Positions 1-17,210 of a stretch of DNA of 61,711 nt are shown here, in pieces. Source of the DNA: Bacillus multifaciens (lineage in GTDB: Bacteria; Bacillota; Bacilli; Bacillales; Bacillaceae_G); the NCBI RefSeq assembly GCF_030756675.1, contig NZ_JAVBXD010000031.1, positions 1 to 61,711 on the forward strand. The letters run 5' to 3'. Below the pieces are notes generated by a model that was not told the DNA's origin, did no database searches, and saw nothing but the letters and a program-made list of their open reading frames with translations. The position numbers were made by a program, and so were the translations under genes. Positions within the stretch are counted from its first letter, which is position 1; each line of letters opens with the position of its first letter.

Positions 1-14
1 CTACTTCTTAGTGA

Positions 15-140
15 TTAGAATGTAGAAGAACTTGAAATAATTGTTGTACAAGTACAACGAGCAGCCATCGGCTCGAATAGATGTTGCCCTTCTCCGTGTA
101 CGCTAACAGTTAAAGCAGTTGGTACTGTGATTTTAGTCAT
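15..140 (-). CDS. pznA: plantazolicin-type precursor peptide
   Basis: This short gene encodes a 41-residue peptide, or 42 if the preceding ATG at 141-143 is used. The leader runs TKITVPTALTVSVHGEGQ and on to FEPMAA, and the core is RCTCTTIISSSSTF. From memory this core is identical to that of plantazolicin from Bacillus velezensis FZB42, while the first third of the leader differs at several positions. In the known pathway the two Cys and most of the Ser/Thr residues become thiazoles and (methyl)oxazoles, the leader is removed, and the exposed Arg is N-dimethylated. The second ATG is preferred because a run of six G lies about six bases before it and because it gives the known 41-residue length. 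The gene diverges from the operon at 549-7633. Identity of the product class is very likely; the chemistry is inferred. Confidence 0.93.
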   Translation of the reverse strand: MTKITVPTALTVSVHGEGQHLFEPMAARCTCTTIISSSSTF

Positions 141-170
141 CATTTTCCCCCCTATGTAGATTTTATCGAC

Positions 171-224
171 AGAATATTTAGTCGATATGTCAAATATTCT
201 GAAATAAGTATCCTAAAATGTCAA
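171..224 (-). promoter_or_regulatory. candidate pznA promoter with overlapping operator-like dyad
   Basis: Reading the minus strand, TTGACA at 224-219 is followed after 17 bases by CAGAAT at 201-196, a plausible vegetative promoter for pznA. A second TTGACA lies at 193-188 with only a poor -10. Positions 171-200 form a dyad: AGAATATTT, twelve bases, then AAATATTCT. A smaller inverted pair (TCGAC / GTCGA) overlaps it at about 166-185. A protein bound here would cover the -10 and start region. Known plantazolicin clusters carry an ArsR-type regulator (PznK), which would be a natural ligand, but no such gene is inside this window. Confidence 0.45.
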
Positions 225-548
225 CCTTTTTTTGGAAAAAAATTTGTGGCGTAATCAAAATGTTTGATTAGGAGATTCATTCCTCTGAATCTAAATTTTA
301 AAGTTTTAAGAAACGTATAATTATTAATTTAAACAATCAACGAACCTTTTGTATGGTTTACGTTTAAATTCTTTATGACATTTTTCACCATATCCTCCAC
401 ACATTGTCTGAATATGCTTTTATAAAGACTTGATTAGTTAAGCCTTGTTCTGTAGCGGTATGTTTTCTTGAATCTCTAATATTTGAAAAAAAATAATTTT
501 CTAAAAATAAATATTGATAAGATAACTTCTGTATGTTTTAATACATTT
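225..548. other. divergent intergenic region upstream of the export operon
   Basis: No gene is seen here. A second dyad lies at 327-369 (ATTTAAAC ... GTTTAAAT, with AACC / GGTT nearer the centre), without a T-run, so it is more likely an operator or mRNA structure than a terminator. I could not pick a convincing promoter for the rightward operon. Confidence 0.4.
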
Positions 549-1451
549 ATGGGAAAAAACAACGAAATTGTAAAAATAAGTAATTTGAGTAAGAGTTTTG
601 GCGATAAATCAGTTTTATCTAGTATTAATCTAACCGTTAAAAGGGGGGAGTCAATTGGCTTAGTCGGGCCTAACGGAGCTGGAAAAACAACTCTCTTGTC
701 GATTATACAGGGAATAAAAAAACCAAATTCTGGTGTAGTGGAGCTTTTTGGGGATATCCCAAATAAGCCAATTCAACGAGTAAAGTTGGGGATTTCACCG
801 CAGTCAATCAGCTTACCAGATACTTTTAAGGCAGGAGAATTAATAGAGTTCGTCCGGAATCACTATCCTAACAAAGCGGGATTTAAAAGTTTGATTGAGG
901 AGTTCCATTTGACAAACATAGTAAATTACAAAGTGGGAGGGCTATCAGGTGGACAAAAAAGATTGTTGTCGACATGTTTGGCTTTTTCAGGTAATCCAGA
1001 ACTCGTCTTATTAGATGAACCTACAACAGGTTTAGATGTTCATACACGAGATTTGCTATGGAGTGTCATCAAAAACAGAAATTCTAAGGGGACCACAATT
1101 ATCGTGACAAGTCATTACTTAGAAGACATAGAAAATTTAACTCAAAGGATTGTGAAGATTGACAAGGGTCATATACATATTGACGATGAATTAAGCCGAA
1201 TAAGAAGTACTATTCAAAGAAAAAATGTGGTGTTGAAAACAGATAAAATAAGTGCTTTCATTCATTTACCAAGTGTCGAGTCTTATAAAATCAAAGGTGA
1301 ATATATCATTTTAAGAACTTTAAGCTCTGAAGAATTGATTAAGGAGATTGTTATGACGATGGAGCATTTTGAGGATCTACGTGTTTTTGAAGATCGTTTG
1401 GATCACTATTTTATGTCTAGCGCCGAAGAAGTAAGGAAGGTAACTCAGTGA
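549..1451 (+). CDS. pznG: ABC transporter ATP-binding protein (plantazolicin export)
   Basis: This is the ATPase half of an ABC exporter, probably moving the mature peptide out of the cell and perhaps giving self-protection. Visible motifs are Walker A GPNGAGKTT, signature LSGGQKR, Walker B LVLLDEP and the H-loop TSHY. The C-terminal ~90 residues are the usual extension of drug/bacteriocin exporters of this type. The frame is open further upstream to a TTG at 483, but the domain begins right after the ATG at 549 (GKNNEIVKISNLSKSF). Neither start has a good ribosome site, so the start is uncertain. It overlaps the permease gene by four bases, so the two are translationally coupled. The symbol follows the FZB42 naming. 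Confidence 0.8.
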   Translation: MGKNNEIVKISNLSKSFGDKSVLSSINLTVKRGESIGLVGPNGAGKTTLLSIIQGIKKPNSGVVELFGDIPNKPIQRVKLGISPQSISLPDTFKAGELIEFVRNHYPNKAGFKSLIEEFHLTNIVNYKVGGLSGGQKRLLSTCLAFSGNPELVLLDEPTTGLDVHTRDLLWSVIKNRNSKGTTIIVTSHYLEDIENLTQRIVKIDKGHIHIDDELSRIRSTIQRKNVVLKTDKISAFIHLPSVESYKIKGEYIILRTLSSEELIKEIVMTMEHFEDLRVFEDRLDHYFMSSAEEVRKVTQ

Positions 1452-2203
1452 AAAGTATAGTATATTTAGCTTCACTACATGCCAAGTTTCAGTTGTTAGA
1501 AGCCTTTCGCATACCTATCAGTATTGTCATGAGTCTGATATCCCCTACTATTGGTCTATTGTTTTTCGTATTACCTCAACAATCTGCAGGGGCCTCTTCA
1601 GATGCCATTACTAAATCGGTTATTGCACTTGTGATTTTTGGAGTAATGGTCAACTCATTGTTTCACTTTGCCGTAGAAATCTCTCAAGCAAGAGAAAGAC
1701 CATGGGGGTCTTATACACGATCTTTACCCGTAGGACAGGGAGCGATACTTCTATCTTATTTATTTTCTTCTGGTGTTTTATCTCTGATTTCAGTAATACC
1801 TTTGTTACTAATGGCAATTATCTTAACAGATGCAAGTATGGGTGTGATAAATTTGATTATTGGTGTCATTTCACTCGTTATGACTTGTATACCATTTATG
1901 CTACTTGGAATTGCTATTGGTTACTTTTCCGTTCCAAAAGCTGCAGTAGCTATCGTACAAGTATTGATGCTGATTTTGGCTTTTGGTGGAGGGTTGTTTA
2001 TACCACCTGACACTTTTAATGAACTTTTCAATAATTTATCTTACATGCTCCCATCACGTTCTTCGTTGGAAATTGTGTCGTGGGGAACTGGGATTAATAA
2101 TGATTTTCCTCTTAAAGGATTGATTGGCTGGATAACCTGGACCTTATTGCTGTTAGTTATCATTATTCTAAAAATAAAGAATGAAGTAGATCGGGAGTAT
2201 TAA
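1448..2203 (+). CDS. pznH: ABC-2 type permease (plantazolicin export)
   Basis: A 251-residue integral membrane protein with about six hydrophobic segments, the standard size and layout of an ABC-2 permease. It starts with GTG inside the stop codon of the ATPase gene, so the two are made together. The charged RERPWGSYTRSLPVG loop after the second segment is typical of antibiotic and bacteriocin exporter permeases. It should form the membrane channel of the exporter with PznG. The next gene follows after 20 bases with a GGAGG site. Assignment as PznH rests on position and family, not on an alignment. Confidence 0.78.
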   Translation: MKSIVYLASLHAKFQLLEAFRIPISIVMSLISPTIGLLFFVLPQQSAGASSDAITKSVIALVIFGVMVNSLFHFAVEISQARERPWGSYTRSLPVGQGAILLSYLFSSGVLSLISVIPLLLMAIILTDASMGVINLIIGVISLVMTCIPFMLLGIAIGYFSVPKAAVAIVQVLMLILAFGGGLFIPPDTFNELFNNLSYMLPSRSSLEIVSWGTGINNDFPLKGLIGWITWTLLLLVIIILKIKNEVDREY

Positions 2204-2223
2204 ATAAGGAGGTACTTCTTTAT

Positions 2224-2928
2224 ATGAGTATTCATTATGTTGGTATTCGAGAGCCGTTAAAAAAAATTTTAGATGAAATTGAGATAGGACATCAAGATCA
2301 TCCTATGCAAATTATTGATCTCGGTGGAGCAATTAATTATAACATTGATTTTTTTACAAATGCTACCGATTTGGAAGCAGAAACTATCTTGTTATCTAAT
2401 AGAAGGCATAATGTTGATGATGAGCTTGGTTCCTTGGAAACTGAACTATTACAAGTATATAAAAATAGTATTCTTTATAGAACCTCGCCACTTGATATAA
2501 ATATTGAGCTTTATAGGGGATGGGCAGGTGCGACAGGGATATTATTAACCGCATTCTCCCCTAAAGGTGTCAATTGGGTTAATACAAAAGATATCGCTCA
2601 TGCATGTTTAATTTCTAAACAAGATGTAAGGGCACGAGCTGGCAAAGCTTTTGAGTTAACGGGTCCTGAGTTAATTAGTATGAGCAGACTTAGAGATATC
2701 TTTGAAGAAGATTTAGAGATGAAAATTGATTTACAGTGCAAAAGTAAAAAAGAAGTTATTGATATTCTTATGCAAAATAAAATGCCTTTAGATTTAGTGG
2801 AATGGTTAGTTGAGTTCCAGGATCAATCTTCAGATAATCGACTACAGTTTACTACAAAAACACTTGAACAAATAATTGGGCATCCACCCAGTGCAGCTCA
2901 GTTATTTAAAAATAAAAAGTTAGTTTAG
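2224..2928 (+). CDS. pznJ: PznJ-like protein, degenerate NmrA-type Rossmann fold
   Basis: A 234-residue protein at the position of pznJ, whose role is not established. The C-terminal half resembles the end of NmrA-like NAD(P)-binding proteins: residues around GKAFELTGPELISMSRL match the usual Y-x-L-T-G-P-E stretch, and the tail IIGHPPSAAQLFKN matches the usual G-R-P-P-x-S-x-x-x-F ending. The N-terminal half is shorter than in true family members and I see no clear GxxGxxG nucleotide loop. A catalytically dead Rossmann protein acting as a scaffold is therefore possible. It has a strong ribosome site (AAGGAGG). The NmrA link is my own reading of motifs and needs a profile search. Confidence 0.6.
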   Translation: MSIHYVGIREPLKKILDEIEIGHQDHPMQIIDLGGAINYNIDFFTNATDLEAETILLSNRRHNVDDELGSLETELLQVYKNSILYRTSPLDINIELYRGWAGATGILLTAFSPKGVNWVNTKDIAHACLISKQDVRARAGKAFELTGPELISMSRLRDIFEEDLEMKIDLQCKSKKEVIDILMQNKMPLDLVEWLVEFQDQSSDNRLQFTTKTLEQIIGHPPSAAQLFKNKKLV

Positions 2929-2950
2929 TTATTAAAAGGAGGAAACAAGT

Positions 2951-3940
2951 ATGCCTGTCCAAGAACAAATTTCTCAAAAAACTGCAAGGTACAAATTAGC
3001 TCCTCATATTACGTTAGGTAATTTACAGGGCAGTCTGATTGGCTTTAAAGCACAATCAATAACAAAAATTGATGGTGAAGGAGTAGTTGAGTTTATCGAA
3101 GGAATCTCGGAATATCTTGTTGGAGATAATGGGGTTTCAATCGAAGAATTAGAGAAGAATTTTGATGTTGAGAGTGGTCAGTTAAAAAATGTCTTAGAAT
3201 TTTTAGTTACCAATGGAATGTGTGTTAAGTCTGACTTTGACTTTAATTTAATTGCTTTTTTAGCTTATGAAAGAGCTGGCGGTCAAGTATCAGTAGAAGA
3301 TATTCTACATAAAATCCAGACGAGTGTAGTGGAAGTCATTGCTCGTGAAAATAATGCAGTAGCTAAGGCATTAATTGCTAATTTGCGGGAATCTGGATTA
3401 AACGTTGTACTTAAAGGTGAATCAGATGAGAAGCCAAGCATTAGAATAGCAGTCGGTACATCACATTTAGATCCACTTTTAGAAGAAGTAAATGATATTG
3501 CATTAGAAGATCATATTCCTTGGTTAAGCGTTGTACCTTATGATGGTCAGACGGCATGGGTTGGTCCATTCTTTATTCCTCATCAGTCGGCTTGTTTACA
3601 TTGCTATAACTTAAGAAAATCAGCGAATTTTGCTGATGATGTATTCCGTTCAGAACTAATGAAAATCAAACCTGTAAATTCGGACAAGCAACCTGTTTAC
3701 AATCAGCCTATTAATTTAGTTCAAAATGGAATTGCTAGTAACTTAATTACAGAATGGGTTGCATTAAGGGATTACGCTTCAAGTGCGATACCTGGTGGAT
3801 TCACAACAATTAATTTAGATGATAGAGGTATCTCATTTAATAATCATCGTGTTTATAGAGTACCTAGATGTCCCAAATGTTCTCCTGCAGCAGATACAGG
3901 TTTTCCTCAAGTTTGGTATCACGGAGAGGTGAATAAATAA
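2951..3940 (+). CDS. pznC: azoline cyclodehydratase C protein (E1/ThiF-like)
   Basis: This 329-residue protein has the features of the partner protein that binds the leader peptide and presents the core to the YcaO enzyme. The N-terminal ~90 residues look like the winged-helix peptide-binding region. The rest is E1/ThiF-like with a structural zinc site formed by C215-x2-C218 and C307-x2-C310. As in other C proteins, the ATP-binding residues of true E1 enzymes are not evident. It has an excellent ribosome site (AAGGAGG) and ends two bases before the YcaO gene, as expected for a stoichiometric complex. The set of C, D and B together is diagnostic of a thiazole/oxazole peptide pathway. Confidence 0.88.
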   Translation: MPVQEQISQKTARYKLAPHITLGNLQGSLIGFKAQSITKIDGEGVVEFIEGISEYLVGDNGVSIEELEKNFDVESGQLKNVLEFLVTNGMCVKSDFDFNLIAFLAYERAGGQVSVEDILHKIQTSVVEVIARENNAVAKALIANLRESGLNVVLKGESDEKPSIRIAVGTSHLDPLLEEVNDIALEDHIPWLSVVPYDGQTAWVGPFFIPHQSACLHCYNLRKSANFADDVFRSELMKIKPVNSDKQPVYNQPINLVQNGIASNLITEWVALRDYASSAIPGGFTTINLDDRGISFNNHRVYRVPRCPKCSPAADTGFPQVWYHGEVNK

Positions 3941-3942
3941 TC

Positions 3943-5289
3943 ATGGTAAACAAATGGACAACGTTAGAAAAATCTTGGAAAGTGTTAGATAGTTTGGCAG
4001 ATCCATATGTTGGAATTGTCCGGAGGGAATACAGAAAGCTCAGAGATGTAGATGATGTATGGGGACACTCATATGGAGCTCATGGTACAGATAGTGAAAT
4101 TTTATTTGGAATACCATCTAATTCTTATAATGGTGGAGGCTCTGATAATCCAGCTGCAGCAAGATTGGCTGCTATAGGGGAAACCGTAGAAAGATATAGT
4201 GCAGCTTATTTACCGTTAAACTCTAATGTAGTACATTTCGGTTCTCAAAAGCAACTAATCAATGAAGGTAAACAGGTAATTGGTTTTGATAAATGGGAAC
4301 TTTACTCTCAGAAACAATATGAGGATCCTGCTTTTCCTCATGGTGTTTGGGATGAAGATACAGAGTTATGGTGGCGACAAGGACAATATGCTGATAATAA
4401 TGAAGAAGTTTGGGCACCTGCACAATTAACTCATATTGCAAACTATACTGAATGGCCAGGGGATTCAAATATTGGCCATGCAACTAGTAATGGATTAGCT
4501 TGTGGTATAACTTATCAAGAAGCAGCGATTTCGGGACTATTTGAAACAGTTGAACGAGATGCATTTATGCTAACTTGGTACAATAAATTAAGTTTACCGA
4601 GAATTGATATCAATTCTTCTCCTAGATTAAAGCGTTTTTATGAAAGATATATTAAGCCAACGTCACTTGATTTGCATTTAATCGACATGACAGTATTTTC
4701 AGGTATCCCTTCTATTCTAGCAGTAATTAGAAATCCATATACAGATTTAGCACCGTTTGCAATAGGAGCAGCTTCCGCTCATTCAATTGAAAGAGCTTGT
4801 GAGAAAGCTGCAATAGAGGGTATGTATACGAGAACTTGGGCGAAAACGGAGCAACGATTAGGGAACGCTTTAGTAGATGTTGATTTTAATAAAGACATAA
4901 ATAGCTTTGAAGATCATATTAAACTTTACGCTGGAACAGAACTAGTTCAAGAAGCAGATTTTCTAACCGAAAATGAAAAATTAGTTGATGTTAATGATTA
5001 TAAGCCATTTGATGATAGTTCTCCCGAAGTCTTATGGAATAGTCTCGTGAGTCATTTATCAAAACAGGGATTTAAGGTTGCAACTTTTGATCTAACTAGC
5101 CCTGATATTAAAGATGCTGGAGCATATGTAGTTAAATCAATTATTCCGGGTTATAAGCCAATTGATGTTCTTTACAGAGGTAGAATGTTAGGTGGAGAAC
5201 GAATTTTAAAACATTCTTATAACCTAGGTTTGGTTGATAAACCGTTTAATTTAGAAGATCTTAACCCGATCCCTCATCCATTCCCTTAA
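3943..5289 (+). CDS. pznD: YcaO-type cyclodehydratase (D protein)
   Basis: A 448-residue YcaO protein, the ATP-using enzyme that activates backbone amides so that Cys, Ser and Thr side chains cyclise to azolines. YcaO hallmarks are visible: ARLAAIGETVERYSA near residue 80, SGLFETVERDAF in the middle, and ERACEKAAIEGMYTR further on, which supply the ATP and magnesium ligands in this family. The C-terminus ends PIPHPFP, the proline-rich tail that inserts into the active site of peptide-modifying YcaO proteins. Length is normal and the frame is intact. It acts with the preceding C protein; the azolines are then oxidised by the next gene product. Confidence 0.92.
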   Translation: MVNKWTTLEKSWKVLDSLADPYVGIVRREYRKLRDVDDVWGHSYGAHGTDSEILFGIPSNSYNGGGSDNPAAARLAAIGETVERYSAAYLPLNSNVVHFGSQKQLINEGKQVIGFDKWELYSQKQYEDPAFPHGVWDEDTELWWRQGQYADNNEEVWAPAQLTHIANYTEWPGDSNIGHATSNGLACGITYQEAAISGLFETVERDAFMLTWYNKLSLPRIDINSSPRLKRFYERYIKPTSLDLHLIDMTVFSGIPSILAVIRNPYTDLAPFAIGAASAHSIERACEKAAIEGMYTRTWAKTEQRLGNALVDVDFNKDINSFEDHIKLYAGTELVQEADFLTENEKLVDVNDYKPFDDSSPEVLWNSLVSHLSKQGFKVATFDLTSPDIKDAGAYVVKSIIPGYKPIDVLYRGRMLGGERILKHSYNLGLVDKPFNLEDLNPIPHPFP

Positions 5290-5317
5290 AAAAGCAGTAG
5301 AAAGGTGATTGATATAT

Positions 5318-6127
5318 ATGGAAAATATTGAAAGACACGCCACCAACTTGGTAGATGTTGTATATGGTAACGAAAGATTACAGTTTGATGATCCATCTGA
5401 AAATTGGTTTGAAGCAACAAAAGTCTATCGAAGCTCAATGGCTTGGGATGCACCCGGAGTGGCGGGTTTAAGTCGATCTGAAACTTTGCAAAAGATTGCT
5501 AGACATGCAAGTAAAAGATTTGATGACTTACCATTGATTCCATTACCAACTCCGTTAAACACCAACGTATCACTAGATGATGCAATTAATGAACGGAGAA
5601 GTGTGGAAAATTTTAAAGGTAGAAGTGTTTCATTAGAAAAACTATCCACTATTTTACAAAAAAGTTATGGGCTGGTAGAACGTCCGGAAGGACCTAGACG
5701 TCCAATACCATCTGGTGGCGCGCTCTATCCTCTAGATCTGTTTGTTGTGGTTAATAAAGTAGATAGTTTAGAAAAAGGTATTTATCATTTTGACCCCTAT
5801 CGAAGAGGTTTGGTAAAGTTAGGTGAATATTCGGAAGAAAAATTTATGAAAATCATGTTGCAAGAAGAGTCTGTTCAAGATTTTGCATTTGCTGTAGTGG
5901 TTTCTGCAAATTTTTGGCGTTCGCGGTTTAAGTACGGGCATCGGTCTTATCGGTTTATTTTTATGGAGGCAGGACATGTAATGCAAAACATGATTTTGTT
6001 ATCTACGGCACAAAAGATTAACAGCCGACCTTACGGTGGATTTATCGATGATGAGTTAATGGAAATGATCGGTGGCTATAATGGCGTAGATGATGCGCCA
6101 ATCTACACATTAGTTGCTGGTATTTAA
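5318..6127 (+). CDS. pznB: FMN-dependent azoline dehydrogenase (SagB-type)
   Basis: A nitroreductase-fold SagB-type oxidase that converts azolines to aromatic azoles. The family opening is seen as AINERRSVENFKG, followed by the PSGGALYPLDLFVVV stretch that shapes the FMN and active site, and EAGHVMQNMILL towards the C-terminus. The frame is open from a TTG at 5309, but the ATG at 5318 is preceded by GAAAGGTGAT at a better distance. It follows the YcaO gene closely. Nine of the ten azole rings in plantazolicin need this step, the tenth ring remaining an azoline; that count is from memory of the published structure. Confidence 0.88.
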   Translation: MENIERHATNLVDVVYGNERLQFDDPSENWFEATKVYRSSMAWDAPGVAGLSRSETLQKIARHASKRFDDLPLIPLPTPLNTNVSLDDAINERRSVENFKGRSVSLEKLSTILQKSYGLVERPEGPRRPIPSGGALYPLDLFVVVNKVDSLEKGIYHFDPYRRGLVKLGEYSEEKFMKIMLQEESVQDFAFAVVVSANFWRSRFKYGHRSYRFIFMEAGHVMQNMILLSTAQKINSRPYGGFIDDELMEMIGGYNGVDDAPIYTLVAGI

Positions 6128-6131
6128 ATGA

Positions 6132-6803
6132 ATGATATTAATTGTATCAGCTTTAGGGATCCTAATTCATTTTTTGGGTCCCTTTAATTCTAAAATGATA
6201 GTCAAAATCATGAATGATAAACCATCTGTCCATCGAAAGTTCTTTAAATATATTACACCCCAACGAAGTTATGATATTACGACGATTACTGCAGCGCTGA
6301 TTTGCTGTAGTGTCATTTTTCGAGAGCTTTTTTCAGATATTTCAAATGATAATAATATCTATGGTATTTTGTTTTTTTGTTTATTAGGAGCTCTTTTTCC
6401 ATTGGTAATATGGAAAATAAAAAAAAGGGTGGTTGTGTTTAATGGAAAGCACTCAATTAACATTGATTCATTGGTATTTCTTCCATTAGCTGCTTTATCA
6501 GAGGAAGTAATTTGGCGTTTTTGCCTCCCTTTTTTGCTACTATACCTATTGGATTCTCTTACATTATCTATTCTTATTAGTTCAATTGGTTTTATTATAC
6601 TACATTTACCGTTAGGTGGATTTAAATCAATTGCTTATATGTCACTTTTTACGATTCTTGTCGTTCTATCATTTCTAGCTTTCGGTATTTTAGCTTCTAT
6701 AGCTTTTCACATTACTCATAATTTAGCAATTCAATTTTTCCGTCCAGTAAGGAAAAAAACATTCAAAACGAAAAATCCCACTTTATCTCAAACTGAGTGG
6801 TAA
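6132..6803 (+). CDS. pznE: CPBP (CAAX-type) intramembrane protease, putative leader peptidase
   Basis: A 223-residue membrane protein with about six hydrophobic segments. The three motifs of CPBP/Abi intramembrane glutamate proteases are present: EEVIWR (EExxxR), FIILH (FxxxH) and HITHN (HxxxN). In the plantazolicin cluster a protease of this family is thought to remove the leader peptide before methylation; relatives elsewhere give bacteriocin immunity, so a protective role is also possible. It starts two bases after the dehydrogenase stop codon, with a second ATG at 6128 in another frame. It is followed by the methyltransferase gene. Confidence 0.82.
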   Translation: MILIVSALGILIHFLGPFNSKMIVKIMNDKPSVHRKFFKYITPQRSYDITTITAALICCSVIFRELFSDISNDNNIYGILFFCLLGALFPLVIWKIKKRVVVFNGKHSINIDSLVFLPLAALSEEVIWRFCLPFLLLYLLDSLTLSILISSIGFIILHLPLGGFKSIAYMSLFTILVVLSFLAFGILASIAFHITHNLAIQFFRPVRKKTFKTKNPTLSQTEW

Positions 6804-6826
6804 AGTTTTTAAAGGTGGTCTACTGT

Positions 6827-7633
6827 ATGCAAATACAAAAAAGAATAAAAGAGCTTGAAGAAAAAAGAGCTCAAGCCCAGTCCTGGTTTGTTGACCCAGG
6901 GAAAAGAAAAATAAGTTCAAATTACGACAATAGAGAGACTTCAACTGTCAGAATCCTATCTGTGGAAACTTTTATTACTTTTTATGAAGTAACGTTTAAT
7001 AGGAAACCTGATTCTATCTTAGATATAGGTTGTGGTCAAGGGCAGGTACTAAAATATTTATCCGAAAAATTACCTCGTGCAGTATTGATGGGTATCGATT
7101 CATCAAAAGATGCGATTAATTCTGCAAATCAACTTAATATAGATGCTGATTTTATATGCACAGAAATCGAGAGTCTACCATTGGATATTTCAGGGGAAAA
7201 GTATGATGTAATTTTTATTCACTTATGTTTTGGATTGTTCAAATATCCTTTAGAGGTGTTAGAGCGTTTAGTTCCTTATATGTCAAATGAATCTCTTATT
7301 TATATAGTAGATTTAAATAGAGACAGTATAGAAGAAGGAATTAGTTCTTCGCAGTCGAAAGATGAAGAATTTTATCTTTGTGATCAGTATAATGCTTCGT
7401 TTACATTATCCGAGTTCAAACATTTATTAATGCATATTACTGAACAAAGAAATGAATTGTCTTTTAAAATTGGAACCTCTGCCATTGGAGGGTTTAATCA
7501 ATTTAGCGCGGACTTTTTATCATTAATTGGAAATAAAAGATTGCAACAAGCTTTAAGGATGATTTCTGAAGAAGAAAATGATCAGAAGCACTCAATGCCA
7601 GAACTTTTACATGCATGGCTTATTAAAACGTAA
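6827..7633 (+). CDS. pznL: SAM-dependent N-methyltransferase (plantazolicin N-alpha dimethylation)
   Basis: A class I methyltransferase with motif I SILDIGCGQGQVLKYL and an acidic residue (GIDSS) at the end of the second strand. The characterised plantazolicin methyltransferase dimethylates the N-terminal Arg of the processed peptide, and the precursor here exposes Arg at the same place. I chose the ATG at 6827 because AAAGGTGG lies eight bases before it; the frame stays open back to a GTG at 6797. It is the last gene of the operon. No clear terminator hairpin follows within 200 bases, though a dispersed repeat and a hairpin at 8062 lie further on. Confidence 0.85.
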   Translation: MQIQKRIKELEEKRAQAQSWFVDPGKRKISSNYDNRETSTVRILSVETFITFYEVTFNRKPDSILDIGCGQGQVLKYLSEKLPRAVLMGIDSSKDAINSANQLNIDADFICTEIESLPLDISGEKYDVIFIHLCFGLFKYPLEVLERLVPYMSNESLIYIVDLNRDSIEEGISSSQSKDEEFYLCDQYNASFTLSEFKHLLMHITEQRNELSFKIGTSAIGGFNQFSADFLSLIGNKRLQQALRMISEEENDQKHSMPELLHAWLIKT

Positions 7634-7634
7634 T

Positions 7635-7766
7635 TTAAAAATCTAAAAGCCACGCTGAAACAGAAAAAATATGAACAAAAATCTCACTGTAGAGCAAAAG
7701 TTTTTTTGTAACAATTATTATTATATCTTTATAAGTATCTTCTGAAATATGGTCAGTTATATACAA
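7635..7766 (-). CDS. possible small ORF, 43 residues
   Basis: Antisense to and just past the end of the methyltransferase gene is a 43-codon frame starting with TTG. A textbook AGGAGGTGA stands seven bases before it, which is what makes the frame worth listing. The predicted peptide begins YITDHISEDTYKD and continues with a hydrophobic, aromatic-rich C-terminal half. I do not recognise it. The ribosome site could instead belong to a lost gene. Confidence 0.3.
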   Translation of the reverse strand: MYITDHISEDTYKDIIIIVTKKLLLYSEIFVHIFSVSAWLLDF

Positions 7767-7888
7767 ACAATTCACCTCCTATTTATATAATATTATATAG
7801 AACTACATAAGGGACAAGAAAAAATTGCGTGTATGTAAGAACTAGAATATGAGGGTAAAAAAGTAGAGTGGGATATGGACACTAGGAA

Positions 7889-8013
7889 GCCTCTTTTTGT
7901 ATGACGAAATTTGTCGGAAGGTCTTTATTCCATGTCGAAGCGCCGATATATTCTAAAGAACGGTCGATATATGTTAAAAATTGCCGATATATTTGAAAGA
8001 ACAATCAATATCT
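7889..8013. repeat. dispersed repeat, copy 1
   Basis: About 125 bases beginning CCTCTTTTT, then GACGAAATTTGTCGGA and GTCTTTATT, followed by roughly 21-base units built on GCCGATATAT or GGTCGATATAT. A second copy at 19471-19596 keeps the same order with scattered differences. The alternating units read like a tandem array of near-palindromic half-sites. This kind of dispersed repeat is characteristic of the B. cereus group; I cannot give its family name with certainty. This copy lies at the right border of the plantazolicin cluster. Confidence 0.6.
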
Positions 8014-8061
8014 CATTATCGATTGATGGAGATAGGGTATGAGAATGTTAATCAACATGAC

Positions 8062-8090
8062 AAAAGGACTGCCTAAGGGTCAGTCCTTTT
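8062..8090. terminator. terminator hairpin, probably bidirectional
   Basis: Stem AAAAGGACTG / CAGTCCTTTT with a nine-base loop, flanked by A- and T-runs. It lies between the end of the plantazolicin region and the leftward gene ending at 8130, and can serve both strands. Confidence 0.75.
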
Positions 8091-8129
8091 AAATATGTTC
8101 ATCAGCTTGATCTAGCAGATTCACCAGTA

Positions 8130-8432
8130 TCATGCTATTCTGTCGGCATCGTACTGTACAATATCGTCATACTCAAACAGTTCAAAGGATTCACCAAATT
8201 CTCGTTCCATGAAGTTGACAAATTCCTTTATGTTTTCTCCTATTTCTTGATTACGGCGAAACTCCATCATAATTGCTCTAAATCGGTGGGGCGGTATTTC
8301 GCATTTAATGTGGTACGATTTGCTGATGCCAAAAGAATCTTTTGTATCGTATAAGACGTATGTATACAACAGAGAGTCATCTCCTTCCTTATATGATGTG
8401 TATATTGTTCCATGATTGGATGAAATATTCAT
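8130..8432 (-). CDS. hypothetical protein, 100 residues
   Basis: An acidic soluble protein with many aromatic residues and no recognised domain (it begins MNISSNHGTIYTSYKEG). It lies six bases after the stop of the small membrane-protein gene at 8439-8588 on the same strand. It has no good ribosome site of its own, so it is probably translated by coupling to that gene. It is followed by the hairpin at 8062. I cannot suggest a function. Confidence 0.55.
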   Translation of the reverse strand: MNISSNHGTIYTSYKEGDDSLLYTYVLYDTKDSFGISKSYHIKCEIPPHRFRAIMMEFRRNQEIGENIKEFVNFMEREFGESFELFEYDDIVQYDADRIA

Positions 8433-8438
8433 TGGTTA

Positions 8439-8588
8439 TTAAAAAAGAGTCACTACTATGCCGTAAACTGATAATCCAATGAAAGCCGGAATACCGACAA
8501 TAACAATTTGTTTCACATTTTCATACGCTTTCGGTTCTACAAGTGGCAAATCTTTTTCCTCCATTTGCCGATATTGTTCTCGTTTCAT
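8439..8588 (-). CDS. small single-span membrane protein, 49 residues
   Basis: This frame encodes MKREQYRQMEEKDLPLVEPK, a short charged stretch, and then one hydrophobic segment (IVIVGIPAFIGLSVYGIVV) reaching the C-terminus. A clear AGGCGGG ribosome site lies before the ATG. It is the first gene of a two-gene leftward unit with the 100-residue protein. The topology suggests a cytoplasmic N-terminus and a membrane anchor. The function is unknown. Confidence 0.6.
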   Translation of the reverse strand: MKREQYRQMEEKDLPLVEPKAYENVKQIVIVGIPAFIGLSVYGIVVTLF

Positions 8589-8942
8589 ATTATCCCGCCT
8601 TTATGGTTGTGTGGATAACATATTCAACCAAAAGGGTTTATGTTACAAATAGTTAACTGAATTTAAAATAAATGTTGAATATTCAGTATATTTGTATTAT
8701 TATTAGTTTATTATCGGATGACAGTGATTAGCCTCCCTGCAAGCCCGAATATTGCTCTGTTGAATTGAATAGTTAATAATTGGCTTCTTTCCACTTGAAC
8801 TTCCTTAGCAGGAAGACGAGCCATCGGGATAGAGACAGTAAAATTCAGTGTAATTCTTTACATTGTTTTTCTGGCTCTTTTTATGTTTCTATAAATGGGG
8901 TTTTTGGAAAGCGTTATCAATACTTATAGGTTGGTGATCTTT
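8589..8942 (+). promoter_or_regulatory. gabP upstream region with hairpin leader
   Basis: No gene is seen. A small hairpin (CTTCC, six-base loop, GGAAG) at 8800-8815 is followed at 8818-8883 by a stem GAGCCA / TGGCTC ending in TTTTT, a terminator layout in the leader of gabP. The order of a small hairpin then a GAGCCA-type terminator resembles the leaders at 13606, 14568 and 17087. Outside the stems the primary sequence is not alike, so I treat it as a separate, weaker case. Confidence 0.45.
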
Positions 8943-10367
8943 TTGGCTAAAGAAAAAAATGAATTGCAAAAAGACTTGAAAACCAGGCATATAACAATGA
9001 TTTCAATTGGTGGGGTTATCGGAGCGGGATTATTTGTAGGGAGCGGGACGATTATTCAATCAACGGGACCGGCAGCGATTTTGTCCTATATTATCGGGGC
9101 GTTAATGGTTGTACTTGTGATGCGGATGTTAGGGGAGATGGCTGCGGTTAATCCTGACAGCGGTTCTTTTGCAACGTATGCTCATAAGGCGATTGGGCCG
9201 TGGGCGGGGTATACAATTGGCTGGTTATATTGGTTTAACTGGGTCATTATTATCGCAATTGAAGCGGTATTGTTAGGGGCGATGGTCAATAATTGGTTCC
9301 CTTCGATACCAGCGTGGATTGCTAGTCTTTTCATGATTATTTTGATGACGATTACGAATATTTATTCTGTAAAGCTATATGGTGAGTTTGAGTATTGGTT
9401 AGCGTTTATTAAGGTCGCGGCGATTCTTATCTTTTTAGGGTTAGGAATTGCGATGATTTTTGGATTTGTTCCTGGTGTGGACAGGCCGAGTTTTTCGGCG
9501 ATCGCTGAAAACGGCGGCTTTTTTCCGAAAGGGATTGTACCTGTATTGCTGAGTGTTGTCTTTATTTCTTTCTCATTATCAGGAAGTGAAGTAGCGGCGA
9601 TTGCGGCGGGAGAATCGGAAAATCCAGAGAAGAATGTCATTAAAGCCATTAATAGTGTTGTTTGGCGTCTGATGCTGTTCTTCGTAGGTTCTGTCACGAT
9701 TTTGGTCATTTTTATGCCATGGAATAATGCGGAGTTATTGAAGCTTCCTTATGCAAGTTTATTCCGGATGGCAGGAGTTCCTGCTGCTGCGGAAATTATG
9801 AACGGAGTTGTGTTCCTGTCGTTGCTGTCTGTTTTAAATTCAGGGTTATACACAAGTTCGCGCATGTTATTTTCGCTTTCGAAAAAGGGAGATGCTCCTC
9901 CTATTTTTTCAAAATTAAACAGTAGAGGTGCACCAATTTGGGCGATCGTGGCAAGTGTTGTATTCGCATTCATTTGCGCAATGCTGAAGGTTATATCTCC
10001 TGATAAACTATTTGCCTTTCTAGCGAACAGCTCGGGCGGCGTTACGATGCTTATGTATATGTTTGTTGCGGTGTCTCATATTCGTTTGAGACGAGAAGCA
10101 GAAAGGGAAGATCCAGGGAAATTAAAAGTGAAAATGTGGTTATTCCCTTATCTCACATACGCAACGCTTCTGATGATTGTTACGATATTCGTTTCGCAAG
10201 CATTTATCGCGGATATGCGCATGCAATTTTATTTGACGATTTTAGCTGCTGCTGTGGTGATCGCATCCTATTTTCTAAGAGTTAGAAAGAGACCAGCAGT
10301 TGTCAAAGATGATCAGGCAGGATTTCCAATTTTAAAAGGTTCAGAGATTGGTATAGAGAAGGACTAA
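8943..10367 (+). CDS. gabP: amino-acid permease, GABA-permease type
   Basis: A 474-residue APC-superfamily transporter with about twelve membrane segments. The family signature near the N-terminus is seen as LKTRHITMISIGGVIGAGLFVG. As the first gene before a 4-aminobutyrate transaminase and a semialdehyde dehydrogenase, it most likely imports GABA, possibly also 5-aminovalerate. I use the TTG at 8943, which is preceded by GGTTGGTGAT and gives the usual N-terminus; an ATG at 8895 in the same frame lacks a ribosome site. A leader with a terminator-like stem precedes it. Confidence 0.82.
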   Translation: MAKEKNELQKDLKTRHITMISIGGVIGAGLFVGSGTIIQSTGPAAILSYIIGALMVVLVMRMLGEMAAVNPDSGSFATYAHKAIGPWAGYTIGWLYWFNWVIIIAIEAVLLGAMVNNWFPSIPAWIASLFMIILMTITNIYSVKLYGEFEYWLAFIKVAAILIFLGLGIAMIFGFVPGVDRPSFSAIAENGGFFPKGIVPVLLSVVFISFSLSGSEVAAIAAGESENPEKNVIKAINSVVWRLMLFFVGSVTILVIFMPWNNAELLKLPYASLFRMAGVPAAAEIMNGVVFLSLLSVLNSGLYTSSRMLFSLSKKGDAPPIFSKLNSRGAPIWAIVASVVFAFICAMLKVISPDKLFAFLANSSGGVTMLMYMFVAVSHIRLRREAEREDPGKLKVKMWLFPYLTYATLLMIVTIFVSQAFIADMRMQFYLTILAAAVVIASYFLRVRKRPAVVKDDQAGFPILKGSEIGIEKD

Positions 10368-10401
10368 ATTGCAAAATAAAAAATGAAAAAGGGGTATTCC
10401 A

Positions 10402-11724
10402 ATGTTAAAAGATAATATTGTCACTACAAAATCTACTATTTTACATGAGAGAAGAAAAAATGCGGTGCCTGCGGGTCCATATAATATTACGAATTTATAT
10501 GTTCAATCAGCAAAAGGAGCCATTATTACGGATATAGATGGTAATGAATTAATCGATTTTGCAGGCGGGATTGGGATGCAAAATGTTGGGCATTGCCACC
10601 CAAAGGTAGTAAAAGCAATTCAAGAGCAAGTCGAATCTTCTATTCATACTTGCTTTCATGTAGCGCCATATGAAAGTTATGTTGCGTTAGCTGAAAGATT
10701 GAATGAATTAACGCCAGGCGATTTTAAGAAAAAAACAATGTTTGCCAATAGCGGAGCGGAAGCAGTTGAAAATGCTGTGAAAATTGCTCGAAAAGCGACG
10801 GGGCGCAGCGCGATTGTTTCGTTTGAGCGTGCTTATCACGGACGGACATTAATGACAATGTCTCTTACTAGTAAAGTAAGACCTTATAAACATGGATTTG
10901 GTCCGTTTGCACCAGATGTGTACAAGCTGCCTTATCCGTACTATTACCGCGCAGAAGACGGGATGACGACAGAGGAAGTGGATGGACAAATTTTAGCGTA
11001 TTTCGAACGTTTTATGTTAGAGGAAGTGGCAAGTGATAACATTGCAGCTATTATTTTGGAGCCGCTTCAAGGTGAAGGTGGGTTTATTGTCCCATCGGCT
11101 GCGTTTATACAAGGAGTCAGAGATCTTTGTGATAAATATGGAATCATCATGATTGCAGATGAAATTCAAACTGGCTTTGCTCGTACAGGAAACTTGTTCG
11201 TGATGGATCATTTTGGGGTAGCTCCTGATTTAATGACATTTTCAAAATCAATTGCTGCCGGTATGCCACTTAGCGCCGTGACAGGAAAAGCGGAACTAAT
11301 GGATGCACCTGGTCCAGGACAACTTGGCGGTACGTTTTCAGGAAGCCCGGTTGCTTGCGCGGCAGCTCTAGCTGTTTTAGATGTTATTGAAGAAGAAAAC
11401 TTAGTGAAACGTGCCCGTGTAATCGGTGATCGTATGATGGAAGTGTTCAATAGCTGGAAGGATAAATATGAATTAATTGGTGATGTGAGAGGCCTTGGAG
11501 CGATGACAGCTATGGAACTTGTTAAGGATCGAAATACGAAAGAGCCGGCAACAGAAGAAGTGAAAGCAATTATGCAGGAAACACACAATAAAGGTTTAAT
11601 TACAATAAGTGCGGGCATTTACAGCAGTGTACTTCGTTTCTTACCGCCGCTTGTGATTACAGATGAACAGCTTGAAGAAGGACTCGTGATTCTTGAAGCG
11701 GCAATTGCTAGGGTATCCAAATAA
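10402..11724 (+). CDS. gabT: 4-aminobutyrate (5-aminovalerate) aminotransferase
   Basis: A class III PLP-dependent aminotransferase of 440 residues. The PLP lysine is K282 in MTFSKSIAAG, preceded by the IIADEIQTGFARTG stretch that holds the pyridine-binding Asp. It transfers the amino group of GABA to 2-oxoglutarate, giving succinate semialdehyde; enzymes of this group also accept 5-aminovalerate, giving glutarate semialdehyde. The nearby csiD-lhgO pair makes that second activity plausible. Ribosome site AAAGGGG precedes the ATG. It is followed after 24 bases by the dehydrogenase gene. Confidence 0.88.
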   Translation: MLKDNIVTTKSTILHERRKNAVPAGPYNITNLYVQSAKGAIITDIDGNELIDFAGGIGMQNVGHCHPKVVKAIQEQVESSIHTCFHVAPYESYVALAERLNELTPGDFKKKTMFANSGAEAVENAVKIARKATGRSAIVSFERAYHGRTLMTMSLTSKVRPYKHGFGPFAPDVYKLPYPYYYRAEDGMTTEEVDGQILAYFERFMLEEVASDNIAAIILEPLQGEGGFIVPSAAFIQGVRDLCDKYGIIMIADEIQTGFARTGNLFVMDHFGVAPDLMTFSKSIAAGMPLSAVTGKAELMDAPGPGQLGGTFSGSPVACAAALAVLDVIEEENLVKRARVIGDRMMEVFNSWKDKYELIGDVRGLGAMTAMELVKDRNTKEPATEEVKAIMQETHNKGLITISAGIYSSVLRFLPPLVITDEQLEEGLVILEAAIARVSK

Positions 11725-11748
11725 GAAGAAGCAGTTGGGGGTAGGAGA

Positions 11749-13191
11749 ATGAAGTTTTTCAATTATATAAATGGGCAGTGGAAAGAGCCATCTACTCAGC
11801 AATATTCAAAAAACTATAACCCGCATAATGGAGAAGGATTAGGAGAATTTCCATTAAGCTCAGCCGAAGATACGCAAGCAGCTATCGCTTCTGCGAAAGA
11901 AGCCTTTCATAATTGGCAAAGGTTATCGTTTCAAGAGCGGGCAAGTTATTTATGGAAAGCAGCAGCGATTTTAAAAGAACGAGTGACAGAAATCGGTCAT
12001 GACCTGACGAGTGAAGAAGGAAAAACACTCGCTGAAGGGATCGGAGAGACGAAGCGGGCCATTAGCATTCTCGAATACTATGCAGGAGAAGCGAATCAGC
12101 CGGTGGGAGAAATCATCCCGTCGGCTAATCCGAACACGATGCTCTACAGCAAACGGGTAGCAGTTGGCCCGGTCGGATTAATTACGCCGTGGAATTTCCC
12201 AATTGCCATTCCAACATGGAAAATGGCGCCGGCACTTATTTACGGTAATACTGTTGTCATCAAGCCTGCAGAAGTGACGCCAAAATCCGTATACCACCTC
12301 GTAAATGCGTTTCACGAGGCAGGAATTCCTGCTGGCGTTATCAATTGTGTCTTTGGAAAAGGTTCAGTAGTCGGAACAGAATTAACAGAAAATCCGGATA
12401 TAAAAGCAATATCTTTTACTGGTTCGAATAACGTTGGAAGAACAATTCAGCAAACGGCGATTGCAAGCGGAAAAAAAGTGCAATTAGAAATGGGCGGGAA
12501 AAACCCACTCGTTGTATTAAAGGATGCTGATATTCACAAGGCAGTAGAGATTGCGATCAAAGGAGCATTTATGTCAACAGGACAAAAATGTACCGCGACA
12601 AGTAGAATTATCGTGGAAGAGGAAGTTTATGAGGAATTTCGCAATCAACTTGTGCAGCGCAGCGAGGCTCTTAAAGTTGGCAATCCATTAGAACAGGATA
12701 CATTTATGGGCCCGTGTGCATCTGAAAACCAGCAGCAATCCGTTTTATCAATGATTGAAGCAGGTAAGAACGCTGCCACGCTGCTTTGCGGAGGCAGCGT
12801 ACCAAAAGAAGAGGAGTTACAACAAGGATTTTATGTGCTGCCGACTATTTTTAAAGACGTACCTCACGATGCACGCATTGCGAAAGAAGAAATTTTCGGT
12901 CCTGTTATTTGTTTGTTTAAAGTGAAGAGTTACAAAGAAGCAATTCACCTAGCGAATGATACAGAATATGGGCTGAGCGCATCCATTTGCACAAATAACT
13001 TAAGCCTTGCCCAGCAATTTATTGATGATATGGAAGTTGGAATGGTTCACGTTAACTCAGAAACAGCAGGAGCTGAGCCGCAAGTTCCATTTGGCGGAAT
13101 GAAGCATTCCAGCGCTGGGCCGCGTGAACAAGGGAAAGCAGCTGCAGAATTTTATACAAGAATCAAAACAGTATATGTAGATCAAGTATGA
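11749..13191 (+). CDS. gabD: succinate / glutarate semialdehyde dehydrogenase
   Basis: An aldehyde dehydrogenase of 480 residues with general base E247 in LEMGGKNP and catalytic thiol C281 in [11 protein letters not shown]. It oxidises the semialdehyde from GabT to succinate, or to glutarate if the substrate began as 5-aminovalerate. NAD versus NADP preference cannot be told from motifs here. Ribosome site GTAGGAG lies before the ATG. The C-terminal [18 protein letters not shown] is typical of the semialdehyde group rather than of betaine-aldehyde enzymes. It is the third gene of the gab operon. Confidence 0.86.
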
Positions 13192-13217
13192 TGACAACAT
13201 AATAATGGGGGATGAAC

Positions 13218-13577
13218 ATGCGTAAAGGAACTTTTTTCATGGCAGGACATGCGAGACTTCCGAAGGGGATGGCTGTGCGCAGTGTCTATGAAACACTAAC
13301 AATTACAATAGAGGCAGATCACAAATATCATGTAATCATCGAATCGTCATGTACCCTTGCGACAGGACACGGGCGGGATTTCATTTCGCAAATTTTAAGA
13401 GGATATAGTTTACAAGATGGTATCGAAGACATCATCGAAGAAATATCCTATCACTATCAAGGAAAAGCGCAAAACGCAATTGTTAGCGCCTTAAAGGACT
13501 TGTACCGCCAATATACAAGTTATGTAAACGGCGAAAAACCGCCGGAGGAGTATGAGGAAATAGGTACGATAAAATAG
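13218..13577 (+). CDS. DUF3870 domain protein
   Basis: A 119-residue protein that I read as DUF3870 (MAGHARLPKGMAVRSVYETL opening, TLATGHGRDFISQILRGYSL in the middle). No activity is known to me for this family; the small size and tight placement after gabD suggest an accessory or regulatory role in the pathway. The frame is open from an ATG at 13212, but the GGGGG run at 13206 fits the ATG at 13218. It is followed by the structured leader at 13606. Confidence 0.75.
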   Translation: MRKGTFFMAGHARLPKGMAVRSVYETLTITIEADHKYHVIIESSCTLATGHGRDFISQILRGYSLQDGIEDIIEEISYHYQGKAQNAIVSALKDLYRQYTSYVNGEKPPEEYEEIGTIK

Positions 13578-13605
13578 TCTTTTCATATATGAAACTGTCG
13601 AGTTT

Positions 13606-13699
13606 ATTGCACTTTACTATGTAAAGAGCGTTCGTAAACGAGAGCCAGTTGTATTCCCGCTTATTTGCTGAGCGGAATATAACTGGCTCTTTTCTTTTC
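13606..13699 (+). ncRNA. structured leader with terminator, family member 1
   Basis: It begins ATTGCACTTTACTATGTAAAG, in which CTTTAC / GTAAAG can form a small hairpin, then TCGTAA, then the stem AGAGCCAGTT / AACTGGCTCT followed by TTTTCTTTT. Relatives at 14568 and 17087 keep the order and most bases, and the small hairpin has compensating changes (CTTTAA / TTAAAG there). It precedes the small Cys-rich ORF at 13721. It could be an attenuator, riboswitch or protein-bound antiterminator; the ligand is unknown. Confidence 0.55.
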
Positions 13700-13720
13700 A
13701 TAAAATAAGGGGGCAGGAAC

Positions 13721-13849
13721 ATGTCAAAATTGAGTGAAGAAAAGCGTGTAGAGGAAAAAGGGAAATGTGTACAAACTACGAAATTATGTAAAATGTGTAA
13801 AGCGTGTAGTCGTAATAAAATTAAGGGGAATAAATCTGTGTACAAATAA
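13721..13849 (+). CDS. small Cys-rich protein, 42 residues
   Basis: It starts MSKLSEEKRVEEKGKC and contains the metal-binding-like stretch CKMCKACSRNK, then a basic tail. A strong ribosome site (GGGGGCAGGA) precedes it, and a good terminator (13881-13920) follows, so it appears to be an expressed single-gene unit under the leader at 13606. The last third is repeated as a decayed fragment at 16901-16943. I do not recognise the family; a small zinc-binding or RNA-binding protein is possible. Confidence 0.6.
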   Translation: MSKLSEEKRVEEKGKCVQTTKLCKMCKACSRNKIKGNKSVYK

Positions 13850-13880
13850 TAAAGTCCTTTAACAAATACAATAGTTATTT

Positions 13881-13920
13881 AAAAAGATGATATGAAATTG
13901 GGTATTCATATCATCTTTTT
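13881..13920 (+). terminator. rho-independent terminator
   Basis: Perfect stem AAAAAGATGATATGAA / TTCATATCATCTTTTT with an eight-base loop, directly after the small Cys-rich gene. Confidence 0.85.
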
Positions 13921-14054
13921 ATGTTATCTAGTATACTGAATGTAATTTTTTTGTATTTTGTATTATTTTGTAATTTATTACAAAATAAGAGTGTATAATA
14001 CATCCTCAAATGATAGAATTATTAACATGTTGCAAAATGAAAGAGGTAAAAATA

Positions 14055-14567
14055 ATGGAGACTTGTGCAGATGTTTTAATTGTTATCGATTTACAAAATG
14101 GCGTATGTTACAGTGGAGATCATTTATTTGATTTACAAAATTTACTCACTAAAGTAAATAATAGAATTGCTTTATATAGAGAATTACATAAACCAATCAT
14201 TTTTGTTCAACACTGTGATGAAGAGTTAGTACCTGAAGAAGAACCATGGGCTATTCATGCCAATATAGATGTTCAAGAGCAAGATTATTTTGTAAGGAAA
14301 ATACATGCAAATTCTTTTTACAAAACGAACTTAAAAAATCTTTTAGACCAATTAGCTGTACATCGTATTGAATTTTGCGGTGCCCAAACAGAATACTGTA
14401 TGGATGCTACGATTAAATTTGCTCATGGATTGGGATACGAAAACTTCATGGTACAGAAAGCAACCTCTACTTTGAATAATCCATTTATGTCTGCAAAAGA
14501 GACGATTGATTTTTATGAAAATATATGGAACCATAGATTTTTAAAATTGATAGGAGATGAATCTTAG
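14055..14567 (+). CDS. isochorismatase-family cysteine hydrolase
   Basis: A 170-residue cysteine hydrolase-like protein. The catalytic Asp is in LIVIDLQNGV near the N-terminus, a Lys lies in VRKIHANSFYKTNL, and the nucleophile is the Cys in FCGAQTEYCMDATIKFA. Relatives cleave amides or vinyl ethers of small molecules such as nicotinamide; the substrate here is not known. I use the ATG at 14055, preceded by AAGAGG. The 99-base leader-like element starts at the very next base after its stop codon. It lies between two parts of a duplicated region and may be a later arrival. Confidence 0.75.
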   Translation: METCADVLIVIDLQNGVCYSGDHLFDLQNLLTKVNNRIALYRELHKPIIFVQHCDEELVPEEEPWAIHANIDVQEQDYFVRKIHANSFYKTNLKNLLDQLAVHRIEFCGAQTEYCMDATIKFAHGLGYENFMVQKATSTLNNPFMSAKETIDFYENIWNHRFLKLIGDES

Positions 14568-14666
14568 ATTGTACTTTAAGAGATTAAAGAACACTCGTAA
14601 TTTGAAGCCAGTTGTACGTTTCGACAATGGAGACATTGTGGATGCGTATGACTGGCTTTTTAGTTT
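14568..14666 (+). ncRNA. structured leader with terminator, family member 2
   Basis: A 99-base element differing at one base from 17087-17185. It forms CTTTAA / TTAAAG, then TCGTAA, then the terminator stem AGCCAGT / ACTGGCT with an inner stem ACAATG / CATTGT, followed by TTTTT. No gene follows in this orientation, so here it may act only as a terminator for the isochorismatase gene, or be the orphaned half of a duplication. Confidence 0.55.
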
Positions 14667-14776: not shown

Positions 14777-14789
14777 GTTCCTATCATTT

Positions 14790-16746: not shown

Positions 16747-16768
16747 ATAATCCCTCCTCTCACTCTAT

Positions 16769-17185: not shown

Positions 17186-17210
17186 TTTAAGACTAAGGAG
17201 GAAGATGTAG

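What the first reader, a model, noticed from the sequence alone, without database searches (positions are those of the whole stretch)
15..7633. Plantazolicin cluster in a Bacillus cereus-group background
The precursor core RCTCTTIISSSSTF and the G-H-J-C-D-B-E-L gene set are seen directly. Plantazolicin is known from B. velezensis, with relatives in B. pumilus and some actinobacteria, and is noted for killing B. anthracis almost selectively. A copy in a genome whose other genes look like the B. cereus group, the target's own clade, would be unusual and ecologically interesting: a member of the group would be making an antibiotic against its closest kin.
Basis: partly seen in the sequence, partly recalled or inferred. 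Interest (0 to 1): 0.85.

Follow-up and report, generated by a model that had tools for sequence, protein, structure and literature searches.

The report
Plantazolicin antibiotic cluster, host not cereus
The DNA holds most of a known gene cluster for the antibiotic plantazolicin, nearly the same as one in Priestia flexa, and nothing found here supports the idea that its owner belongs to the anthrax bacterium's own group.

Summary
The window's left end carries a real, open plantazolicin (PZN) cluster. The precursor (15-143, minus strand) has the PZN core and matches the curated PZN family (E 5e-25). J, C, D, B, E and L follow intact; L is closest to the crystallised PZN methyltransferases BpumL and BamL. 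Positions 1-7628 are 96.4% identical to a Priestia flexa NBRC 15715 contig, and the match stops at the end of pznL. The product should be plantazolicin A ([M+H]+ 1336.48 computed).

The "G-H" pair is not pznG/H but an extra ABC transporter between A and J, shared with P. flexa and B. badius; genes in the F-K-G-H-I positions would lie off the left edge. And nothing supports a Bacillus cereus-group host: HU protein is 92-96% identical in nine aligned genomes, so not diagnostic, and HU plus upstream DNA is best matched in an unnamed family. The exclusion is indirect: no cereus-group genome could be recognised for comparison. Recent transfer of a known cluster between bacilli is the likely story.

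The parts
15..143 (-). pznA precursor, 42 aa; leader ...GEGQHLFEPMAA, core RCTCTTIISSSSTF
   Evidence: TIGR04218 87.1 bits, E 5.3e-25; 98% identical to P. flexa, 90% to B. safensis, 88% to B. badius, 62% to L004
549..1451 (+). ATPase of an extra ('inner') ABC transporter, not in the pznG position
   Evidence: ABC_tran; 94.7% to the P. flexa inner ATPase, 67% to B. badius, 41% to L004, 37% to the B. safensis outer ATPase
1448..2203 (+). permease of the same inner ABC transporter (GTG start), not in the pznH position
   Evidence: ABC2_membrane; 99.6% to P. flexa, 80.5% to B. badius, 53.6% to L004, no significant match in B. safensis L003
2224..2928 (+). pznJ, role unproven
   Evidence: 96% to P. 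flexa, 71% to B. badius and B. safensis, 39% to L004; only a weak family match, TIGR03649 E 0.0049, far under its cut-off
2951..3940 (+). pznC, leader-binding partner of the cyclodehydratase
   Evidence: TIGR03882 57.4 bits, cut-off 36.9; 94% to P. flexa
3943..5289 (+). pznD, YcaO cyclodehydratase
   Evidence: TIGR03604 345.7 bits, PF02624 210.8 bits; 97% P. flexa, 86% B. safensis, 85% B. badius, 56% L004
5318..6127 (+). pznB, SagB-type azoline dehydrogenase
   Evidence: TIGR03605 122.5 bits, cut-off 78.4; 97.8% to P. flexa
6132..6803 (+). pznE, CAAX/Rce1-type membrane protease, likely leader peptidase
   Evidence: PF02517 35 bits, cut-off 22.4; 95% to P. flexa
6827..7633 (+). pznL, N-terminal Arg dimethyltransferase
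   Evidence: PDB BpumL 4kwc 366 bits and BamL 4kvz 290 bits; 93.6% to P. flexa
144..548 (.). divergent intergenic stretch between pznA and the inner ABC/J-L genes; presumed to hold both promoters
   Evidence: position only; no promoter scan was run

Best explanation
This is a plantazolicin biosynthesis cluster, cut at its left side by the window's end, of the kind found in Priestia flexa and B. badius that carries a second ABC transporter between A and J. PznC holds the leader of the 42-aa precursor, PznD cyclises all ten Cys/Ser/Thr of the core, and PznB oxidises nine rings. PznE probably removes the leader after ...MAA, and PznL dimethylates the N-terminal Arg, giving plantazolicin A. The outer transporter (off the window) and the inner one probably export the product and/or protect the producer. 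The host is an unnamed bacillus that probably gained the cluster by recent horizontal transfer shared with P. flexa; nothing indicates the B. cereus group. Shown here: homology, gene order, open frames, core identical to that of P. flexa and B. safensis. Inferred: chemistry, leader cleavage, transport and immunity roles, the missing left genes, and transfer.
For: Precursor and enzyme families. PZN methyltransferase structures as best hits. 96.4% DNA identity to L001 over 1-7628, ending there, with dS 0.089 and dN 0.016 over six concatenated genes (inner ABC pair, J, C, D, B; A, E and L left out). Core identical to that of P. flexa and B. safensis. The core has exactly ten cyclisable residues and a computed [M+H]+ of 1336.478, against 1336 reported for PZN (PMC4517070 passages). 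Genes in the FKGHI positions lie just left of A in L001, L002 and L003, and homology to L001 runs to window base 1. Transfer: in the P. flexa genome the 15,067 bases beyond the cluster find one match only, gabT at 67%, and HU DNA is 85.7%.
Against: Genes in the F, K, G, H and I positions are not in the window, so completeness is assumed. No expression or mass data. The P. flexa contig is short (17,649 bases) and could be foreign to that assembly, which would weaken the transfer argument. HU and gabT in P. flexa may not be true orthologues. In pznC dN (0.028) is not far under dS (0.046). G+C of the cluster (34.6%) is lower than the next 17 kb (37.8%) but close to the rest of the window (35.4-35.8%). 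No named B. cereus-group genome could be compared.
Confidence: 0.88

Rival explanations
1. One reading: the host is a member of the B. cereus group that makes plantazolicin against its closest kin.
For: A transposase stretch near the right edge is 84% identical to one on a Bacillus arachidis plasmid, and a 62-base piece is 97% identical to a second plasmid of that species; I recall, without a call, that this species is near the cereus group. The host's genome is not held, so it is not excluded outright. The 16S of G133 is the nearest to the recalled cereus signature of the four tested.
Against: HU with its upstream DNA is best matched in an unnamed family whose one assembled 16S among six members tested differs at 6 of 37 positions from the recalled cereus signature. 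Flanking genes have no close relative in the searched genomes. Megablast of window 1-24500 and 37000-61711 against 72,556 plasmids gave only those two B. arachidis pieces, one Niallia taxi gene and one Bacillaceae record (24501-36999 was not searched). YcaO relatives on plasmids are all under 60% identical (88 records).
Confidence: 0.06
2. The cluster is a decayed or silent remnant carried among mobile elements and makes no product.
For: The right part of the window holds transposase and defence genes, and the left half of the cluster is not visible.
Against: All nine reading frames are open. Over six genes dN (0.016) is well under dS (0.089) against P. flexa, and core and leader are conserved.
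Confidence: 0.07
3. The cluster makes a different azole peptide of the streptolysin S or heterocycloanthracin kind.
For: C, D and B belong to the wider SagBCD families.
Against: Core identical to that of P. flexa and of B. safensis FO-36b; in another B. safensis strain, APC 4099, PZN was detected by mass spectrometry (PMC7617318 passages). PZN-type methyltransferase.
Confidence: 0.02

Closest known systems
Plantazolicin-type cluster on a contig of Priestia flexa NBRC 15715 (L001)
   Same: 96.4% DNA identity over window 1-7628, same gene order, same core, same inner ABC pair
   Different: Right flank unrelated beyond pznL; genes in the F-K-G-H-I positions visible on the left in L001, off the edge in the window
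Plantazolicin-type locus of Bacillus badius NBRC 15713 (L002)
   Same: Same order including the inner ABC pair; D 85%, B 86%
   Different: Core RCTTTTIISSSSTL; pznE (43%) and pznL (50%) diverged, with about 1.8 kb between them
Plantazolicin-type cluster of Bacillus safensis FO-36b (L003), and of B. velezensis FZB42, pznFKGHIAJCDBEL (order from PMC4517070)
   Same: Same core in L003; J, C, D, B, E, L collinear
   Different: L003 has no ABC pair between A and J; the FZB42 sequence itself was not compared, only its published gene order
PZN-like cluster on a contig binned as a Spirochaetia MAG (L004)
   Same: A, inner ABC pair, J, C, D, B, E, L in the same order
   Different: D only 56%; core RCTTTTIISSSSCF; left of A a K-like gene (35-38%) and a gene in the F position without significant similarity, no outer ABC pair recognised; the bin's taxonomy is doubtful

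Membership tests
Plantazolicin (linear azol(in)e-containing peptide) cluster | Short precursor with core starting at Arg, about five cyclisable residues, two nonpolar residues, then five to six more | tested here: met
   Core RCTCTTIISSSSTF, ten C/S/T; TIGR04218 over cut-off; definition from PMC4603692 section 13 passages
Plantazolicin (linear azol(in)e-containing peptide) cluster | Separate C, D and B proteins (cyclodehydratase and dehydrogenase) | tested here: met
   TIGR03882, TIGR03604 and TIGR03605 over cut-off
Plantazolicin (linear azol(in)e-containing peptide) cluster | PZN-specific N-terminal Arg methyltransferase | tested here: met
   Best PDB hits BpumL and BamL, 288-366 bits over six distinct chain sequences; the next hit 25 bits
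Plantazolicin (linear azol(in)e-containing peptide) cluster | Leader protease E | tested here: met
   Rce1-like family over cut-off, collinear between B and L; leader cleavage itself not tested
Plantazolicin (linear azol(in)e-containing peptide) cluster | F-K-G-H-I genes next to A | tested here: inconclusive
   Not within the window, which starts 14 bases beyond the stop of A; genes in these positions lie left of A in L001, L002 and L003
Plantazolicin (linear azol(in)e-containing peptide) cluster | Product of 1336 Da with selective activity | not testable with these tools
   Mass computed only
Bacillus cereus group (as host) | Marker genes closest to the group | tested here: inconclusive
   HU with upstream DNA best matched in another, unnamed family, but no cereus-group genome could be recognised for comparison

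The most novel reading that the evidence does not exclude
A transferable form of the plantazolicin cluster exists that carries a second, dedicated ABC transporter between precursor and maturation genes. This transporter supplies self-protection or extra export and lets new bacillus hosts take up the cluster without poisoning themselves, and it explains why near-identical clusters sit in unrelated genera.
Probability: 0.25. Interest if true: 0.5.

Novelty: new member of a known kind. Interest (0 to 1): 0.27.

Why it matters
It adds an unnamed bacillus to the likely producers of an unusually selective antibiotic and shows a form of the cluster with an extra transporter. A scan of the GTDB r220 species genomes for close relatives of pznD gave four loci. 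The window's cluster is nearly identical to one of them while its surroundings are not, which points to horizontal spread. The host claim that would have made it striking is not supported. The self-immunity of plantazolicin producers, which I recall as unresolved, could be approached through the inner transporter.

Tried and rejected
Host by whole genome: not held. Host by plasmids: one Niallia taxi match (476 bases, 81%) for window 1-24500 and three records with transposase-region or short matches for 37000-61711; 24501-36999 was not searched. gabT relatives on plasmids are all under 60% (2004 records). pznD has no relative in phages nor in viral contigs (10 stretches matched a pattern, none confirmed). 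Host by csiD-lhgO: 113 of 397 genomes match, best E at 71%, best 74% over 684 bases; 27 of 43 in the family of the best one; LhgO protein 76% in G215 and 64% in G002, 11 of 13 genomes matching at E 0.001 but the other matches at 41% or less. Host by HU: 395 of 397 match, protein uninformative. Recognising cereus-group genomes by a recalled 16S signature: 0 of 20, but of 12 of these tested for 16S only 4 have one, so absence means little. By the exosporium leader family: 0 of 397 at E 0.001, with 0 of 14 controls ringing; at E 5, 14 of 30 weak hits, none over cut-off, and 3 of 14 unrelated controls ring too: uninformative. HU in PDB: closest 1hue (165 bits); 3rhi, which I recall as B. anthracis, scores 116, but I recall several HU copies in that group and draw nothing from it. 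GabT in PDB told nothing about the host.

Papers (passages only, unless said otherwise): PMC8470653 (cereus-group endophytes) speaks of an unassigned azole-peptide cluster, not plantazolicin. PMC8866423 names plantazolicin for some B. amyloliquefaciens and B. velezensis genomes. PMC12241182 reports it in 15% of B. velezensis genomes. PMC6937992 mentions B. amyloliquefaciens and B. pumilus. PMC4464531 mentions activity on B. anthracis. Of the six papers listed two (PMC12045831, PMC12029370) were seen as listing only; of the seven two were opened; of 186, 40 were listed. No paper found joins plantazolicin with Priestia flexa or Bacillus flexus, or, in a four-term search, with Bacillus badius. 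The name badiazolicin is recalled; none of the six papers listed holds it.
Full report
OBSERVATION. The ORF at 15-143 (minus strand) encodes a 42-aa peptide ending in RCTCTTIISSSSTF and is a clear member of the curated plantazolicin precursor family TIGR04218 (E 5.3e-25). On the plus strand follow an ABC ATPase (549-1451), an ABC permease (1448-2203), J (2224-2928), C (2951-3940), D/YcaO (3943-5289), B/SagB (5318-6127), E/Rce1-like (6132-6803) and L (6827-7633), with families as listed. None of these nine frames has an internal stop. L finds as its best solved structures BpumL and BamL, the plantazolicin methyltransferases (366 and 290 bits; the first hit outside these two scores 25 bits).

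RELATIVES. A pattern scan of the GTDB r220 species genomes with pznD gave 25 candidate stretches, of which four encode a relative: Priestia flexa NBRC 15715 (97%), B. badius NBRC 15713 (85%), B. safensis FO-36b (86%) and a contig binned as a Spirochaetia MAG (56%). The method finds close relatives only and the collection holds one genome per species, so strain-level carriers can be missed. In an even sample of 397 genomes of the order, 2 have a pznD at E 1e-100 or better, both already. No relative was found in phages or viral contigs, and plasmid relatives are all under 60% identical (88 records).

GENE ORDER CORRECTED. The published FZB42 order is pznFKGHIAJCDBEL (PMC4517070 passages). B. safensis L003 shows genes in these positions: F 3920, K 4506, G 4821, H 5948, I 6764, then A on the minus strand at 7748-7873 and J from 8296. 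The letters F to I are given by position; no FZB42 protein was compared. The gene in the I position carries pentapeptide repeats in L001, the only copy tested. In the window the ABC pair lies between A and J. Its ATPase is 94.7% identical to the corresponding inner gene of P. flexa and 67% to that of B. badius, but 37% to the outer ATPase of B. safensis; its permease has no significant match in B. safensis. P. flexa and B. badius have both pairs, L003 the outer one only, and on the 11-kb L004 contig only the inner one was recognised. Homology to P. flexa runs unbroken to base 1, which makes their presence likely but not shown.

MECHANISM. By the established plantazolicin pathway (PMC5100339 passages; PMC4603692 section 13 passages) PznBCD makes ten cyclodehydrations and nine dehydrogenations, PznE cuts the leader and PznL dimethylates the N-terminal Arg. 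The window's core has exactly ten Cys/Ser/Thr, and the computed [M+H]+ is 1336.478, against 1336 in print. The product should be plantazolicin A itself. What the inner transporter does is inference: export or self-protection.

HOST. The source genome is not held. HU with its upstream DNA scores best in G402 (84%), then G379, G401, G278, G070 and G133 (79-81%), all of one unnamed 19-genome family. Over the gene alone several genomes outside it are closer in identity, up to 88%, so the placement rests on the upstream DNA. A second gene beside the cluster (8089-8433) matches G401 of that family at 78%. The 16S of G133 differs at 6 of 37 positions from the B. cereus-group signature that I recalled; three other 16S genes differ at 10, 16 and 17, so G133 is the nearest of the four. 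In matches longer than 200 bases that are listed, gabP, gabT, gabD, csiD and lhgO are at most 74% identical in DNA to any searched genome. My attempts to identify cereus-group genomes for comparison failed, so the group is made unlikely, not excluded.

TRANSFER. Window 1-7628 is 96.4% identical to P. flexa and the match ends at the end of pznL; dS over six concatenated genes is 0.089, whereas pznD alone has dS 1.08 against B. safensis. Beyond it, 15,067 bases of the window find a single match in the P. flexa genome, gabT at 67%; HU DNA is 85.7%. G+C is 34.6% in the cluster, 37.8% in 7634-24900 and 35.4-35.8% further right, so composition adds little. Recent transfer, directly or from a common donor, is the simplest reading. 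The caveat is that the P. flexa contig is only 17,649 bases long and might be a contaminant.

VERDICT. A new carrier of a known antibiotic cluster, with a corrected gene map. The ecological claim about a producer inside the target's own clade is not supported. Interest is modest.

Noticed in passing
window 26930-40311: Druantia-like defence genes: DruE 34606-40311 (1964 bits), DruF 31573-33621 (826 bits), DruL 33611-34591 (392 bits), DruM-like methylase 26930-28189 (433 bits); best models mix types II and IV.
   Followed up: partly
window 44656-51309: A helicase/restriction-like protein (PADLOC mREase_IV, 285 bits), then two proteins that I take from memory for McrB-like (47519-50020; PADLOC best PD-T4-1, 107 bits) and McrC-like (50017-51309; no PADLOC match); a defence island next to Druantia.
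   Followed up: no
L004:2485-10948: A plantazolicin-like cluster with core RCTTTTIISSSSCF on a contig binned as a Spirochaetia MAG; could be a mis-binned actinobacterium, or a spirochaete case.
   Followed up: partly
L001:13824-13933 and window 61428-61537: A short stretch just right of the P. flexa cluster is 74.5% identical over 110 bases to a DDE transposase gene at the window's far right end.
   Followed up: no
window 54861-57056: 731-aa protein with, by eye, a signal region and C-terminal choline-binding/cell-wall-binding repeats; its N-terminal part has no Pfam family.
   Followed up: no
window 8895-19443: gabP-gabT-gabD followed by csiD and lhgO genes (names mostly from my reading of the sequence), a GABA/glutarate-type catabolic neighbourhood without a close relative in the searched genomes.
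   Followed up: partly
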